Source: Basidiobolus meristosporus CBS 931.73
Lineage: Eukaryota; Basidiobolomycota; Basidiobolomycetes; Basidiobolales; Basidiobolaceae
Length of the DNA stretch: 44,368 nucleotides
Direction: 5' to 3'
Assembly: GCA_002104905.1 (NCBI GenBank)
Contig: MCFE01000697.1
Coordinates: 1 to 44,368 of the forward strand
Shown: positions 39,075 through 44,368 of the stretch, piece by piece
How positions within the stretch are numbered: position 1 is the first letter of the stretch
Layout: each line of letters begins with the position of its first letter
Notes under the pieces: model-generated
What the model saw: only the letters and a program-made list of their open reading frames with translations
Told to the model about the DNA's origin: nothing
The model's database searches: none
Translations under genes and position numbers: made by a program

Positions 39075-39337
39075 TAGGGTGGGGGGGGGGAGGAGATTTA
39101 ACAAGTGGTGAAATCTTGGTTTACTAATGACAAGTAACTGAAGTGTCAAGTTGATCAGAAGTTATTCCCAGAAAGCTAAGTATGAGTGACATCTTCCTGA
39201 TAAACCATGTCTGAGAGCTGAGAAGCTGAGTTGTATTGAATTTCCTAGTTATCTAAGTCTGAGAGAGGATTTCTAAAAAGCCAAGCCTGAGAAGTGAGAA
39301 TCTGGGTATATCTGAGGTGAGTTGTACTGATTTGCAG
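39075..39337 (-). mobile_element. 5'-truncated LINE fragment A
   Basis: Starts at a TAGGGTGGGGG stretch and parallels the segment 42824-43087 (shared blocks such as AAGTGGTGAAATCTT, ATCTTCCTG, CTGAGAGAG and GAGAAGTGAGAATCTG). On the minus strand the low-coordinate end is the element 3' end. Its 3' hairpin is degenerate. Confidence 0.6.
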
Positions 39338-39609
39338 TTAGGGGGGGGGAGACAGTCACCAACAGGTGGAATCCTTAATTCAGCTGAAACAAAGATGCCA
39401 GTGCTATTGTTATAGCTCTAATACAAAAGTGTGTAGTTTAGGGGAATTGGTGGGGAACTTGATAAGGAGAGATGATAGCTCCTCAGTGCTAAAAACATTG
39501 TTCAAAGGGGTAAGGGGGTAGCCAGCCAGGTAAGAATGATTTATGAATAACAATAATAAGGGGAATATGAAATGGATTGATACTCATCAAAAAGGGAGTG
39601 TGCTGTTTC
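39338..39609 (-). mobile_element. 5'-truncated LINE fragment B
   Basis: Starts TTAGGGGG and matches the 3'-most roughly 265 nt of the long LINE (39630-39895): AGACAGTCACCAACAGGTG, AGTGTGTAG, AGGTAAGAATGA and GGGAGTGTGCTG. It is cut at its 5' end after GTGTGCTG. Confidence 0.75.
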
Positions 39610-39629
39610 TTAGAGGGGGGGAGATAGTC
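39610..39629 (-). mobile_element. Very short LINE 3'-end remnant C
   Basis: TTAGAGGGGGGGAGATAGTC: a telomere-like start plus the first bases of a LINE 3' end, directly followed by the junction of the next element. Confidence 0.45.
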
Positions 39630-39691
39630 TTAGGGGGAGACAGTCACCAACAGGTGAAATCTTTATTTCAGTTGAAACAAAGAAGCCAGCG

Positions 39692-42445
39692 CTACTGTTG
39701 TAGCTTTGATACAAGAGTGTGTAGCTGAGGGGAATTTGTAGGTAAGTTAATAAGAAGTGATGATAGTTCTTCAGTGCTCAAGACACTATTCAGTGGGAAG
39801 GGGGGTAGCAAGAGAGGTAAGAATGACTTGTGAACAACATTAATGAGGGGAATGTGATAAGGATTGATATTCATCATAAAGGGAGTGTGCTGCTGCAGAT
39901 ATTGCTGCCAAAGGTCTGTCAAGTACTTCAGGTTGGCCAGCTTGGGTTTTTCTGACTGCAGAATATAATGAGCAAGCCTCTTGACTTCAGGATCTCCAAG
40001 TATAGTTTTCCAGCAGGAGTCAGGTGTAGTGTAGTGTGTTCTCTTCCAGGCCTTAATCAGTGGGTTGTTGCAGTGGTGAAGTCTGAGATATAATCTGGTT
40101 CTAAGGTAGAGAAGTCTGATCTTATAGGGCATAAACCTAAAAGCACCAAGCATAGCATGTCTGTAGGGGCATTCAGGCAAATGAGGCACCAAGGAGGTAA
40201 TGCACCTGACTGCAGACTTGTCAAGCTTGGTGCAGTCTCTAGAAGTAAGAGAGAGAAGTGGTAAGCCAAATTCCAGGACAGGGAAGACAAACTGCCTGAG
40301 TAGAAGGAGGCAGCTGGGAGCTGAAGTTGTAGGAGGAGTAACAGCCAGTAGCTTGTGGAGTGCCTGTCTTGCCTGGATAATTCTCTTCTTCAGGTGTGCT
40401 CCAGAGTCTAGTCCAGTAGGAAGGAAAGGAAAGCCAAGATATGTAGCAGCAATCTGAGCAGGTAGAGTGGAGTTCTCCAAGTTGATGGGAGAGCCCAAAG
40501 GTACTGTCTTTGCAATGGAAAGCTGGAGATTATTCTTCTGCAGGTACTGGTGGATGGTCTGGGAGTCTTGTTGCACATTGGAGGAGGATATTCTGATGTC
40601 ATTGGCAAAGAGAGTAACCAGGCAGTCAGCTGAGAGTCTTGGGAAATCATTCAGGAAGATGGCAAACAGTATAGGACCAAGCGCAGAGCCTTGAACCACT
40701 CCATTAGGAACTGAGAACACAGCTGATTGCCCACTTGGGTGAGGAATTCTTGCTTATGGATCCAGAAACAGAGACCTGACAAGGAGGGTGAGAGAGGTAC
40801 TGGAGAAGCATTGCAACTTGGACCAAAGCAGATTTCTGTCAACTGAATCAAAGGCCTTAGTAATATCAAACAGAACAGAGGGATACTTGCACTGGAGAGA
40901 GTGATCTTGGCTAAGTATGACTGCATATTCCAAGGAGAGGCCAGGAACAAAGCCAAACTGTGCAGGGTGAAACTTGAGGGAGTCAGAGTAGAGCTCCTCA
41001 GCAAGCAGAAGCTCAAACACCTTTCTGCAGGTGGGCAGTAGAGATATTAGCCTGTAGGAGCTAGGATCCAGGTGCTTTCCTTTACCCTTGTACAGTGGCA
41101 GAACATTTGCAAAGGACCATTCCTCAGGAGTAGAAAGCTGGGCTGTGCATTGTTGAAACAGTGGAAGCAGAAGTGCAGACATGGCCTTGGTACTAGTCTT
41201 CAGAAGCTCATAGGAGATTGTGTCCCCACCTGGGGCAGTAGAGTTGGGAAGCTTCATGAGCACATTATGGATTCTCCCTTGATCAAGTGCAAGTGGGATG
41301 GGCAGAGTCTTAAAGTCAGGATGAAAGCCAGGAGTTGAGTACTGCTTTGTAGAGAAGAAGATGTTAGCCAGCTGTTCTGTTGAAGGTAACTTCCTGGAAG
41401 AGGGCCTTATTGCCCTGTAGAGTCTTGATACTGTTCTTGTTATAGAGTTGGAAGATTGCAGAGGCAAAGAACTCATAATATGATCCCAGAGCTGAGTATG
41501 CAGAGTGTGGTGAATTGCCTTGGAGTGGTGTATGGCTGTCAGGAGGAGTTTCTCTGTTTTTGGGTTAGGGAAACTCAGATAGCTTTGCTGCAGGGCTGAA
41601 ACAATGGATTCCCATTTGCTTGAGGTAACAGCAGTAGTCTTGCATGGCAGTGAGAGGGAGGCAGACACCAGAATCAGATGCTTCACAAAGAGCCTGGCAT
41701 AGTTGAGATCATCTGGCAGAGAAAGTAGCAAACTGGCAAGCTTCAAGTAGTTCCCAAAGTCTTTCTTCTGATTCTTGGTAGCTTTGTGGGTGAGCACAGT
41801 AAGTTTTGGCAGCTTCTTCTTCACAACTGGTTGCATAAAAAGGGACCAGGCTGGGTGGTCAGAGGATCTCAAGGATCCTAGCTCAGCTCCAGAGAATTGC
41901 TTGACTTGATTCACAAAGTAGAGGGCAGCAGCAGAAGGGCAGATCCAGTCAACACATCTTCTCCCAGATTGAGCACCTAGTGCTAGCAGATGGCTTTCTC
42001 TCAGGAAGTTCAGTAGGAATGTAGACCTTGGCTTCATTCTTGCAGTCACAGTAGTCTTGTTCTCAGGATGGGGAATGTTGAGATCTCCAAGCAAGATAAC
42101 AGGTGTTGATATAGATTGCTGGTATTGCTGAACTTTCTGGCATATAACTTGCACTTCCTGAAGGGGGAGACTTGGAGGCAGATAGCAGAGCACCAGACTG
42201 ATAGTTGGCAACTGGAGAGCAGCACAGTAAGGGGAGTAAATAGGTACACAGAGCTGAGGAGTATTGATGGTAGAAGAGATGAAGCTGATAGAGGAGGTAT
42301 TCTTTGTTCTAGGAGTAGAAAAGCAATATTGATTAGTCAAAAGTATAGAGGGTAGCTGGACATCAATCAAACACAGGAGGGAAAATCTTGAAAGAAGTCT
42401 CTCTAGAGTTGGTCTTGATGGCTGTAAGCTGTTGCAGTTAAGCAA
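39692..42445 (-). pseudogene. LINE ORF2: APE endonuclease + reverse transcriptase, inactivated
   Basis: Starts LLNCNSLQPSRPTLERLL with the endonuclease landmarks LLGDLNIPHPE and SSDHPAW, then RT with ALDQGRIHNVLMKLPNSTAPGGD, YRLISLLPTCRKVFE, motif A FDITKAFDSVDR, motif B GVVQGSALGPILFAIFLNDF and motif C. The frame holds one in-frame TAA at 40754-40756, between motifs A and B. Motif C reads LFANDI instead of the [FY]xDD needed for catalysis, so an Asn replaces the first Asp. Downstream residues run without break to a stop at 39692. No RNase H domain is visible. This copy is dead on two counts. Confidence 0.85.
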
Positions 42446-42750
42446 CAGAACTTCAGGTAGTCAGGCAGAGGTTGTAGCTTCTTCAGAGGCAGCATTGACA
42501 ATGTGACCTGCAGAGTCCCAGAGCTCTTCAAATGGTGCATTACTTAAGTCAGCAAGGTGGGAAATGGCATGATTCTTGAGGAAGTATGCCACATCCTAGG
42601 AGGGGGCTTGTCTCTTGATGGCAGCAAAGACAGACAGAATGGCAACATGAGCTGGAGGCTTGTTGAACAGTAGAGAGTCAGAGGATTCAGATACTTCAGG
42701 CACTATCTTGAAGTCAGTTTTCAGCCAGTTAAGGTTCTTCTCCACAAAGG
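42446..42750 (-). pseudogene. LINE ORF1 remnant
   Basis: On the minus strand this reads EKNLNWLKTDFKIVPEV, then VAILSVFAAIKRQAPS, stop, DVAYFLKNHAISHLADLS, ending EEATTSA, stop, just before the endonuclease. It is 5'-truncated at the telomere-like junction. No zinc knuckle is visible in what remains. Confidence 0.5.
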
Positions 42751-42751
42751 C

Positions 42752-42823
42752 TTAGGGTTAGGGGGAGGAAAGTCACCAAGTGGTGAAATCTTTATTTACT
42801 TTTGACAAGTATCCAAACAAGCC
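42752..42823 (-). mobile_element. 5'-truncated LINE fragment E (72 bp)
   Basis: TTAGGGTTAGGGGG followed by GAGGAAAGTCACCAAGTGG and the start of the same 3' UTR as fragment F; cut after ACAAGTATC. Hairpin TCACC-AAGT-GGTGA at 42773-42786. Confidence 0.7.
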
Positions 42824-43280
42824 TTAGGGGGGAGGAAAGTCACCAAGTGGTGAAATCTTTATTTACTTATGACAAGTATCTTAAGAAGCCAAGTTAATCT
42901 GAAGTAGTTCCTAGAAAGCTAGGTTGGAGAGATATCTTCCTGGTAAGCCAAGTCTGAGAGTTAAGAGGCTGAGTGGTACTATATTTCCTAGTTAGCTAGG
43001 TCTGAGAGAGGTTTCCTGGAAAGCCAGGCCTGAGAAGTGAGAATCTGAATATATCTGAGCTAAGTTATACTGGTTTGCGGTAGCTGAATTGTGGCTGGAA
43101 TGGCCAGTAGACTGGGGGAACGGAGAGGAATTTTGATGCAATCACTGGCCAAATTTACTAGGCAAATCTGGCCAATTTGCATTTCAAGGATTTCAGCCAA
43201 TTAGAGCCTTTACTTTGCCTAATGGTTGATCAAGCCATCTCCCAATGAGCACACATCAATTTATTAATCAAATTTTGCTG
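42824..43280 (-). mobile_element. LINE fragment F
   Basis: Starts TTAGGGGGGAGG, hairpin at 42840-42853, then AATAAA on the minus strand. The first 264 bp match fragment A. The 5' limit is unclear and may lie near 43280, where tRNA-like sequence and a copia LTR follow. Confidence 0.6.
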
Positions 43281-43327
43281 GATCCAGGATTTGAACCCAC
43301 AACCATTAAGGGTGTAGGTGTTATAGT

Positions 43328-43676
43328 TGTTGTAAAAATTTGTAATTCCACCTAAATATTCACCTAACTTAGTCACTTAGATCATCACCTTCAAATCCTA
43401 GAGAATACTGACCAAATTCCTTGTCGGGATTTACTTAGAATATTTTCACCAAAATACCAGGTACCCAGAACATGAAAATTCTCAAAGTTGTCCAAACAGC
43501 CCCAAACTTTGCACACATGTTCTTGGGACCTTCCTTAACCTATTCTATGTGTTTGTAATGCCACGACCAGGTAAAAGTATAAATACTACTTTTACATTCA
43601 ATAAATCATTAAGTGAAAACCACATAATCTACTTGTTCTCCCAATCACTTCCAATATCACCAAGACTCTTAAAACA
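43328..43676 (+). repeat. 5' LTR of a copia element
   Basis: Begins TGTTGTAAAAATTTG and ends AAAACA (TG...CA ends), directly followed by a primer-binding site. It contains TATA-like and polyadenylation-like (AATAAA near 43602) sequence. The left end is inferred from the TG rule because no second LTR is present. Confidence 0.6.
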
Positions 43677-43688
43677 GGTTATGAGCCC
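43677..43688 (+). other. Primer-binding site for a half initiator-Met tRNA
   Basis: GGTTATGAGCCC is the reverse complement of GGGCTCATAACC in the anticodon arm of eukaryotic initiator tRNA-Met, rather than of the tRNA 3' end. Drosophila copia and yeast Ty5 use such an internal, half-tRNA primer site. Confidence 0.65.
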
Positions 43689-43707
43689 CAAGCTGTCACT
43701 CTCTGCA

Positions 43708-44236
43708 ATGTCTACTACTGCTATTACTGGAATTTTTCCCTCTGCTGAAAAGTTGGATGGATCTAACTACCAAGTGTGGAAGATGAAGATGAAGATGCTG
43801 CTACAAGAAAGAGGCCTTTGGGATATTGTCATGGGAGAAGAATGCCCTCCTAAAAATGTGGGAGAGGAAGCCTTAAAGTACCAGAAGAAAGAACAAAGTG
43901 CCTTTAACTGCATTTGCCTTAATGTCAAGGACAAATTGCTAATTCAATGCTCAAGAGCAAAAACGGCAAAGAATGCCTGGAAAGCATTAGAAGACACCTA
44001 CCAGTCATGTTCAGCTGCCAAGAAGATATATCTGAGACAAAAATTCTTTACTACAAGGATGCTGCCAGGAGAAGAAATGAAAAATCCAATTAACAGAATT
44101 ACCCTGCTGGTAGATGAGATGGAATCTGTGGGGGTACCAGCTGTGAGTACTCAATGTAGTACCCACTCTTTGCCCAAGAGTTCTCCCAAGAGTTCCCTCC
44201 AGAGTCCTACCCAAAGTCCTCCAGTACCCTCCCTAT
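43708..44236 (+). pseudogene. Copia gag (UBN2-type), truncated by the telomere
   Basis: Ty1/copia-class Gag polyprotein start. From the ATG at 43708 (an in-frame ATG at 43681 overlaps the primer site) it reads MSTTAITGIFPSAEKLDGSN, then the family hallmark YQVWKMKMKMLLQERGLWDIV, a helical segment with NAWKALEDTYQ, and IYLRQKFFTTRMLPGEEM. Copia-like similarity ends around VDEMESVGVP (about 44141). A low-complexity Ser/Pro stretch follows and the open frame runs straight into the TTAGGG repeats. No protease, integrase or RT remains. Confidence 0.75.
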
Positions 44237-44368
44237 TTAGGGTTAGGCTTAGGGTTAGGGTTAGGGTTAGGGTTAGGGTTAGGGTTAGGGTTAGGGTTAG
44301 GGTTAGGGTTAGGGTTAGGGTTAGGGTTAGGGTTAGGGTTAGGGTTAGGGTTAGGGTTAGGGTTAGGT
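44237..44368 (+). repeat. Telomere repeats (TTAGGG)n
   Basis: About 22 units of TTAGGG running to the window end, with a variant TTAGGC as the second unit and TTAGGT as the last. G-rich strand runs 5' to 3' toward the end, so this is a right chromosome end. Confidence 0.97.

What the first reader, a model, noticed from the sequence alone, without database searches (positions are those of the whole stretch)
39075..43280. Head-to-tail LINE array in which each element 3' end joins telomere-like sequence
Seen: six LINE segments in one orientation, each beginning on the plus strand with a telomere-like G-run (39075 TAGGGTGGGGG; 39338 TTAGGGGG; 39610 TTAGAGGG; 39630 TTAGGGGG; 42752 TTAGGGTTAGGGGG; 42824 TTAGGGGGG). 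Five are 5'-truncated. On the plus strand the polarity is TTAGGG then element, as expected if the TTAGGG strand 3'-OH primed reverse transcription from an RNA ending in CCCCCUAA. Known parallels are MoTeR in Magnaporthe, TRAS/SART in silkworm and Zepp in Chlorella. Inference: this lineage has a LINE that inserts into, or extends, telomeres.
Basis: partly seen in the sequence, partly recalled or inferred. Interest (0 to 1): 0.88.

Follow-up and report, generated by a model that had tools for sequence, protein, structure and literature searches.

The report
Fungal telomeres overgrown by LINEs and SINEs
At the chromosome ends of this fungus, two kinds of jumping genes, a long one with its own copying enzyme and a short one that appears to borrow it, are stacked one after another onto the telomere DNA, each joined through a telomere-like tail, so the chromosome tips seem to be built partly by telomerase and partly by these parasites.

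Summary
Observation mostly confirmed, and it holds in the genome-wide samples taken. The window is a chromosome end capped by about 22 TTAGGG repeats. The array is real and head-to-tail, but three of the six segments belong to a ~530-nt SINE-like element (Pol III A and B boxes), one is a ~20-nt remnant, and all six are 5'-truncated. In the 89-Mb assembly, 47 of 48 exact SINE-type 3' ends on long contigs lie within 10 kb of the contig end they point to. All 82 element segments read on 19 forward loci share one orientation. 415/447 SINE-type and 628/721 LINE-type exact 3' ends have TAGGG at the joint. Many distal 5' ends run straight into the terminal telomere. Six element types share a 3' module: two hairpins, a C-run and CCCCTAA. 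ORF2 has an N-terminal APE-type endonuclease plus RT, unlike MoTeR, FoTeR and Cnl1 (CRE/R2-like). ORF1 and ORF2 are joined by in-frame UGA-CUA, a known fungal readthrough context, seen in two diverged LINE lineages. Best reading: the telomeric G-strand 3'-OH primes reverse transcription on RNAs ending in CCCUAA; telomerase recaps. Natural end versus endonuclease nick is unresolved. New variant of a known kind. Expression and mobility were not tested.

The parts
39075..39337 (-). SINE-B fragment (element sense on minus strand), 5'-truncated, old copy; 3' joint TAGGGTGGGGGGGGGG at 39075
   Evidence: blastn 39089-39338 to SINE 521-271, 85%; 3' joint
39338..39609 (-). LINE-A 3' fragment, old copy, 5'-truncated
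   Evidence: blastn 39345-39605 to LINE 4557-4298, 84%
39610..39629 (-). about 20-nt 3'-end remnant with G-run, joined directly to the next element
   Evidence: read by eye (TTAGAGGGGGGGAGATAGTC followed by TTAGGGGG); not tested by alignment
39630..42751 (-). LINE-A copy, 5'-truncated inside ORF1
   Evidence: blastn 39634-42751, 97% to another copy; 5' joint at 42751
39692..42460 (-). ORF2 (APE-type endonuclease + reverse transcriptase), one in-frame stop at 40753/40754 and an altered RT catalytic motif: a dead copy
42458..42463 (-). UGA-CUA between ORF1 and ORF2 (in frame)
   Evidence: TGACTACCT in 11 of 11 rows, 10 distinct copies
39630..39683 (-). shared 3' module, LINE-A version: hairpin 1, hairpin 2 (TCACC/GGTGA), C-run, CCCTAA
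42752..42823 (-). SINE-B 3' fragment (about 60 nt of element) on TTAGGGTTAGGGGG
   Evidence: truncation at SINE position 462
42824..43306 (-). SINE-B copy lacking its first 45 nt; keeps the B box
   Evidence: blastn 42831-43306 to SINE 521-46, 93%; B box GGTTCAAATCC read by eye
42824..42886 (-). shared 3' module, SINE version
43307..44236 (+). Copia-like LTR-element fragment (gag from about 43720), cut off and capped by telomere repeats
   Evidence: Retrotran_gag_2 E 1.1e-27; repeated in other loci
44237..44368 (+). terminal telomere tract, TTAGGG about 22 copies; contig end

Best explanation
This is a telomere-targeted retrotransposon community: autonomous APE-type LINEs (LINE-A, and a second lineage here called LINE2) and partners without a seen RT (a Pol III-type SINE, family B; families C and D, probably also non-autonomous). 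Their RNAs end in a common signal (two hairpins, C-rich tail, CCCUAA). The LINE protein, probably made as an ORF1-ORF2 fusion by UGA-CUA readthrough plus ORF1 alone, binds that signal. The CCCUAA end pairs with the TTAGGG strand of a telomere, whose 3'-OH primes cDNA synthesis toward the chromosome tip. Copying often stops early, and the cDNA end is recapped with TTAGGG repeats by telomerase or by annealing to remaining repeats. Repetition gives head-to-tail arrays with 3' ends inward and 5' ends outward. Shown: anatomy, location, orientation, joints, shared 3' module, intact ORF2 frames, a TERT domain. Inferred: mobility, priming by pairing, readthrough, use of LINE protein by the SINE, telomerase recapping. 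Whether the 3'-OH is the natural end of a short telomere (slightly preferred) or an endonuclease nick is open.
For: Location. One orientation. Telomere-like 3' joints: 415 of 447 and 628 of 721 exact 3' ends; 88 of 94 sampled matches with at least one TAG(G)n unit, 44 of them with two or more. Distal 5' ends abut the terminal tract: 13 of 18 sampled tract starts have LINE-A or SINE-B within 15 nt. LINE-A truncation points: 42 distinct among 43 joints; SINE full-length in 31 of 45; these count the 94 of 103 readable 5' ends that have telomere-like sequence within 6 nt, 9 without it having been left out. 5' joints share more bases with the TTAGGG frame than random breakpoints do (mean 1.76 versus 0.75, 46 of 56 eligible joints used, p=9e-9). 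Spacers inside the arrays are short: inward of the outermost motif-bearing element median 14 nt, maximum 59, against terminal tracts of 120-243 nt (11 ends). Shared 3' module in 9 sequences of 6 types. Pol III boxes in full-length SINE copies: B 28 of 29, A 26 of 29 with at most 1 mismatch, TTTT absent from 27 of 29. EN and RT. UGA-CUA: and its known effect in a fungus, PMC4207609 (passages). Many near-identical RT copies, about 35 of 150 in a 922-aa frame (counted by eye). TERT RNA-binding domain present.
Against: No polymorphic insertion, transcript or activity was available. The shared hairpins are conserved mainly in sequence: RNAalifold finds 0 of 11 pairs with changes on both sides. The SINE head has no Rfam tRNA match even at E 10, so tRNA origin rests on the boxes alone. 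Age order is only partly clear: the innermost copy is more diverged than the outermost in 10 of 17 loci, equal in 7, never less, but rank correlations are not significant. Two internal arrays exist (C558, C726). 32 of 447 SINE-type and 93 of 721 LINE-type exact 3' ends lack TAGGG in the searched spacing. 9 of 103 readable 5' ends have no telomere-like sequence within 6 nt. 5' truncation could also come from breakage followed by healing, as the Copia fragment at the tip of this very window suggests.
Confidence: 0.8

Rival explanations
1. SART-like insertion into double-stranded telomere: the APE endonuclease nicks the TTAGGG strand inside a normal-length tract, the element inserts, and the repeats left on its inner side are later lost by breakage or contraction.
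For: The endonuclease fold is present and its GDLN, VDW and SDH motifs are kept in relatives (by eye; TRAS1 EN 1wdu matched at TMt 0.64). SART1 inserts inside repeats (PMC7265360, passages). Internal tracts of more than 3 repeats break easily in the MoTeR host (PMC7367193, passages).
Against: Even inward of the outermost, presumably newest, motif-bearing element the spacer is short (median 14 nt, maximum 59) against 120-243 nt terminal tracts (11 ends).
Confidence: 0.35
2. The arrays mostly grow by recombination or break-induced replication between chromosome ends, with little ongoing retrotransposition.
For: Reported for MoTeR arrays (PMC7367193, passages). One LINE-A truncation point (4031) is shared by two contigs. 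Ends are repeat-rich and the assembly often breaks there (8 of 20 sampled ends).
Against: 42 distinct LINE-A truncation points among 43 joints; spacer lengths and G-runs differ from joint to joint; many intact ORF2 frames.
Confidence: 0.1
3. The G-runs are simply the elements' own 3' tails; insertion is not telomere-directed and copies persist at ends because they do no harm there.
For: A C-run ending in CTAA is part of the types aligned and 44 of 94 joints have only one unit.
Against: Near confinement to ends and a single orientation in the samples; two or more telomere units at 44 of 94 joints; selection against internal copies would not fix orientation.
Confidence: 0.04
4. Assembly artefact.
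For: Contigs are nearly all deposited with the telomere on the right, which is unusual, and some arrays sit on short contigs.
Against: Arrays sit at the ends of contigs of 150-260 kb, and mirrored arrays occur at both ends of C291 and C361.
Confidence: 0.02

Closest known systems
MoTeR1/MoTeR2 (Magnaporthe), FoTeR (Fusarium), Cnl1 (Cryptococcus): CRE/R2-like telomeric LINEs of fungi
   Same: At telomeres; for MoTeR head-to-tail, 5' ends outward, TTAGGG spacers, non-autonomous partner MoTeR2 (PMC7367193, passages)
   Different: Reported as REL-endonuclease or R2-like elements (PMC12857005, PMC12810828, PMC7367193, passages); here an N-terminal APE-type endonuclease, two ORFs joined by UGA-CUA, and a Pol III-type SINE partner instead of a LINE with its RT region replaced
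TRAS and SART (silkworm; R1 group by PMC10088271, passages)
   Same: APE-type endonuclease, two ORFs, telomere-specific; EN fold match to TRAS1
   Different: SART joins by poly(A) and inserts inside repeats (PMC7265360, passages); Bombyx copies at telomeres are full-length (PMC4700185, passages); here a CCCCCTAA tail and mostly truncated LINE copies; no close RT relationship was shown
HeT-A, TART, TAHRE (Drosophila)
   Same: Head-to-tail arrays added toward the tip, possible use of the natural chromosome end
   Different: Drosophila lacks telomerase and telomeric repeats (PMC7265360, passages); here a TERT domain and TTAGGG caps are present
Zepp (Chlorella) and endonuclease-deficient Penelope-like elements (Athena)
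   Same: LINE or PLE insertions at chromosome ends
   Different: Their tail and enzyme features are recalled, not tested here; the RT here matches LINE-1 and other APE-type LINE proteins
LINE/SINE pairs sharing a 3' tail (for example UnaL2/UnaSINE1, recalled)
   Same: SINE carries the LINE's 3' hairpin module
   Different: Here the tail ends in telomere sequence and the SINE lives in telomeric arrays

Membership tests
MoTeR/FoTeR/Cnl1 (CRE/R2-like) | Restriction-like endonuclease C-terminal to the RT | tested here: not met
   APE-type fold N-terminal to the RT; no separate search for the REL motif was run
MoTeR/FoTeR/Cnl1 (CRE/R2-like) | Telomeric head-to-tail arrays, 5' ends outward | tested here: met
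MoTeR/FoTeR/Cnl1 (CRE/R2-like) | RT groups with CRE/R2 elements | tested here: inconclusive
   Profile search: LINE-1 ORF2p E 7.5e-23 against R2 E 7.8e-9; 50 of the 67 further database hits carry an APE domain (counted by eye); no tree with named references
TRAS/SART | APE-type endonuclease | tested here: met
   the Pfam matches are below the curated cut-offs for LINE-A
TRAS/SART | poly(A) 3' tail joined to telomere repeats | tested here: not met
   3' end is CCCCCTAA
TRAS/SART | R1-group RT | not tested
   no named R1-group reference was available for a tree
HeT-A/TART | Substitutes for absent telomerase | tested here: not met
   TERT RNA-binding domain found; TTAGGG caps
SINE | Pol III internal promoter boxes | tested here: met
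   B box 28 of 29, A box 26 of 29 with at most 1 mismatch
SINE | tRNA-derived head | tested here: inconclusive
   No Rfam tRNA match at E up to 10
SINE | 3' tail shared with a LINE of the same genome | tested here: met
SINE | Moved by that LINE's protein | not testable with these tools
   needs a retrotransposition assay

The most novel reading that the evidence does not exclude
Chromosome tips in this fungus are extended by a second, telomerase-like activity: the LINE reverse transcriptase uses the bare TTAGGG 3' end of short telomeres as primer and any RNA with the shared hairpin-CCCUAA end, SINE RNA included, as template, so that a SINE acts as an alternative telomerase RNA; telomerase then adds the cap. 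The LINE protein is made by programmed UGA-CUA readthrough.
Probability: 0.35. Interest if true: 0.88.

Novelty: new variant of a known kind. Interest (0 to 1): 0.72.

Why it matters
Fungal telomeric LINEs in the papers seen here (MoTeR, FoTeR, Cnl1) are CRE/R2-like. This one has an APE-type endonuclease, which would make telomere targeting by LINEs in fungi a repeated invention, and it appears to have recruited a SINE. In the papers held, searches listed no report of a SINE confined to telomeric arrays; the one phrase hit (a frog paper, passages) describes a satellite derived from a genome-wide SINE. The common CCCUAA-ending RNA module is close to a telomerase template and makes the old question of how LINE RTs and telomerase relate testable in one organism that has both. 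The shared UGA-CUA also offers a clean case of LINE expression by readthrough.

Tried and rejected
Rfam tRNA search of the SINE failed. Formal covariation of the 3' hairpins failed (0 of 11 pairs changed on both sides). Age order by BLAST identity was not significant. I first thought that the endonuclease might have lost its catalytic glutamate; comparing with relatives suggests a conservative E-to-D change plus intact GDLN, VDW and SDH motifs (by eye), so a dead endonuclease is not claimed. L081 was first read as Copia but has no Pfam match and is left as an unidentified repeat. Organism identity was not established; Basidiobolus was a guess recalled from assembly size. Literature searches for a telomeric SINE, for readthrough in LINEs, for telomeric LINEs in early-diverging fungi and for Basidiobolus with telomere and retrotransposon listed no report of this system; one search returned nothing. 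Seen of papers: PMC12857005 outline with abstract, passages and one section; passages of PMC10088271, PMC12810828, PMC5009743, PMC4700185, PMC7367193, PMC7265360, PMC7473861, PMC4207609 and PMC10794172; all others search listings only.
Full report
WHAT IS THERE. The window is contig C976 of an 89.0-Mb, 1311-contig assembly and ends in a TTAGGG tract of about 22 copies. Gene content (GH18 chitinase, CBM5/12 protein, a snoRNA of the S. pombe snR35 type) points to a fungus; the species was not established. None is full-length. Between the array and the telomere lies a Copia-like fragment cut off and capped by TTAGGG. The window's ORF2 is dead: one in-frame stop and an altered RT catalytic motif.

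GENOME-WIDE TEST. The 19-nt 3'-end motif (up to 2 mismatches) occurs 1164 times forward and 102 reverse, reversed-pattern control 0 and 0; (TTAGGG)5 occurs 6978 forward and 73 reverse, control 0 and 12; tract starts preceded by a non-G base occur 108 forward and 3 reverse. Contigs are thus deposited mostly with the telomere on the right, and the elements share that bias. Of the 100 exact B-type hits listed, 99 had a known contig length; of these, 48 lie on 30 contigs over 100 kb, and 47 of the 48 are within 10 kb of the end they point to (the other is at 18.3 kb, C80, with a further reverse copy at 1.4 kb). The other 51 lie on 28 short contigs and say little. I left out one further such match, C726:66301, which lies 3.3 kb from its end. 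The two exceptions, C558 and C726:58040, were fetched because they looked internal; both are themselves head-to-tail arrays. Contigs C291 and C361 carry mirrored copies at both ends.

JOINTS. Exact 3' ends preceded by TAGGG at 4-12 nt: 415 of 447 for the SINE type, 628 of 721 for the LINE type. In the sampled loci, 94 matches (one of them, on L027 minus, spurious) have telomere-like units at the joint distributed 0:6, 1:44, 2:24, 3:5, 4:6, 5:4, 6:4, 10:1, with a G-run of 5-6 in 68. Of 20 long-contig ends, 12 are telomere-capped. The other 8 stop inside LINE-A or SINE-B (L073, L076, L078, L082, L088), a LINE-like endonuclease frame (L074), Copia-like sequence (L075, gag_pre-integrs E 1.3e-12) or an unidentified repeat (L081, no Pfam match). 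Of 18 tract starts taken at every fifth place (two dropped: C926 reverse and the second tract of C671; this list leaves out tracts preceded by G, hence full-length SINE ends), 13 have LINE-A or SINE-B within 15 nt. The others are: L117, matching the stretch next to a family C end; L124, an ORF1-like frame read by eye; L116, Copia-like (Pfam matches of about E 3e-5, below the cut-offs); L118, a tRNA-gene region; L127, mostly unidentified. 5' ends: of 103 readable continuations, 94 have telomere-like sequence within 6 nt and 9 do not. Among the 94: SINE full-length in 31 of 45, LINE-A 43 joints at 42 positions, LINE2 6. Truncated 5' ends overlap the TTAGGG frame by 1.76 nt on average against 0.75 for random breakpoints (46 joints used of 56 eligible, 10 dropped for unclear register, p=9e-9). 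Inward of the outermost motif-bearing element the spacer has a median of 14 nt (maximum 59), while terminal tracts are 120-243 nt (11 ends; in the window a Copia fragment lies between the two).

ANATOMY. LINE-A: ORF1 of 523 aa with a CPNCG finger (by eye) and a coiled-coil-like stretch (weak Pfam only), an in-frame TGA followed by CTA, then ORF2 of 922 aa. TGACTACCT is found in 11 of 11 rows (10 distinct copies); TGACTA recurs in a second lineage (L074; one copy read), whose endonuclease start is 44% identical to LINE-A over 103 residues and 59% to database relative P0005 over 39. P0005 and the LINE2 copy in L026 are each 48% identical to LINE-A ORF2; that L074 and L026 are one lineage is inferred. 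The endonuclease domain begins within ten residues of the stop, GDLN is at residue 125 and the first methionine at 142, so an ordinary AUG start would lose more than half of the domain. UGA-CUA triggers readthrough in the fungus Ustilago maydis (PMC4207609, passages). About 35 of 150 RT matches lie in a 922-aa open frame (counted by eye): many intact copies exist. SINE-B: 29 full-length copies, B box exact in 28, A box with at most 1 mismatch in 26, no TTTT in 27 (5.5% of shuffles of one copy lack it), median pairwise identity 96.7%; no Rfam tRNA match. LINE-A, LINE2, SINE-B, C, C2 and D share the 3' module: hairpin 1, TT, hairpin 2 (TCACC/GGTGA), C-rich tail, and CTAA where the stretch reaches it (9 sequences). 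The stems are conserved mainly in sequence, so covariation does not support them formally.

RELATIONSHIPS. Five database proteins form its own group (46-83% identity to LINE-A or to each other). The other 67 hits fall to 22-39% over part of the query; 50 of the 67 carry an APE-type endonuclease domain (counted by eye), and one is named an X-element-type polymerase. A PDB profile search puts LINE-1 ORF2p (E 7.5e-23) before R2 (7.8e-9). The AlphaFold model of relative P0001 is modest (pLDDT 61), but 15 of the first 21 ten-residue blocks score 67-89, and Foldseek matches TRAS1 endonuclease 1wdu (TMt 0.64) and other APE-type nucleases, after LINE-1, R2 and other RTs. MoTeR, FoTeR and Cnl1 are reported as REL or R2-like (PMC12857005, PMC12810828, PMC7367193; passages).

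MECHANISM. On the plus strand the joints read TTAGGG, then the reverse complement of the element, with the element's 5' end outward. That is the product expected if the G-strand 3'-OH primes copying of an RNA ending in CCCUAA (inference from polarity). Short inner spacers favour priming at short telomeres or at the base of the tract. Overlap at 5' joints fits telomerase seeding or annealing. A TERT RNA-binding domain is present, so telomerase is likely to recap. Rivals are set out in their field; the nick-in-tract model stays open.

LIMITS.

Noticed in passing
window 43307-44236; L116; L075: Copia-like elements are broken off and capped by telomere repeats at this end and at one sampled further end (L116), and one uncapped end stops in Copia-like sequence (L075), suggesting that broken ends are healed by telomere addition.
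   Followed up: partly
L118:433-505: A telomere tract begins at the 5' end of a tRNA-Lys gene, beside a tRNA-Ala gene: a chromosome end with no LINE-A or SINE-B match in the 500 bases read.
   Followed up: no
L023:4753-6470; L115; L133: Family D, a roughly 1.7-kb, probably non-autonomous element with a 271-aa ORF and the same 3' module, perhaps the counterpart of MoTeR2.
   Followed up: partly
G000:C558:96730 and C726:58040: Two internal arrays in inverted orientation; old telomere fusions or assembly chimeras.
   Followed up: partly
whole assembly: Telomere strand bias of 6978 to 73: nearly all telomeres are deposited at the right end of contigs, and several telomeric contigs are only 10-20 kb, so the number of chromosome ends may be inflated by variants.
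   Followed up: no
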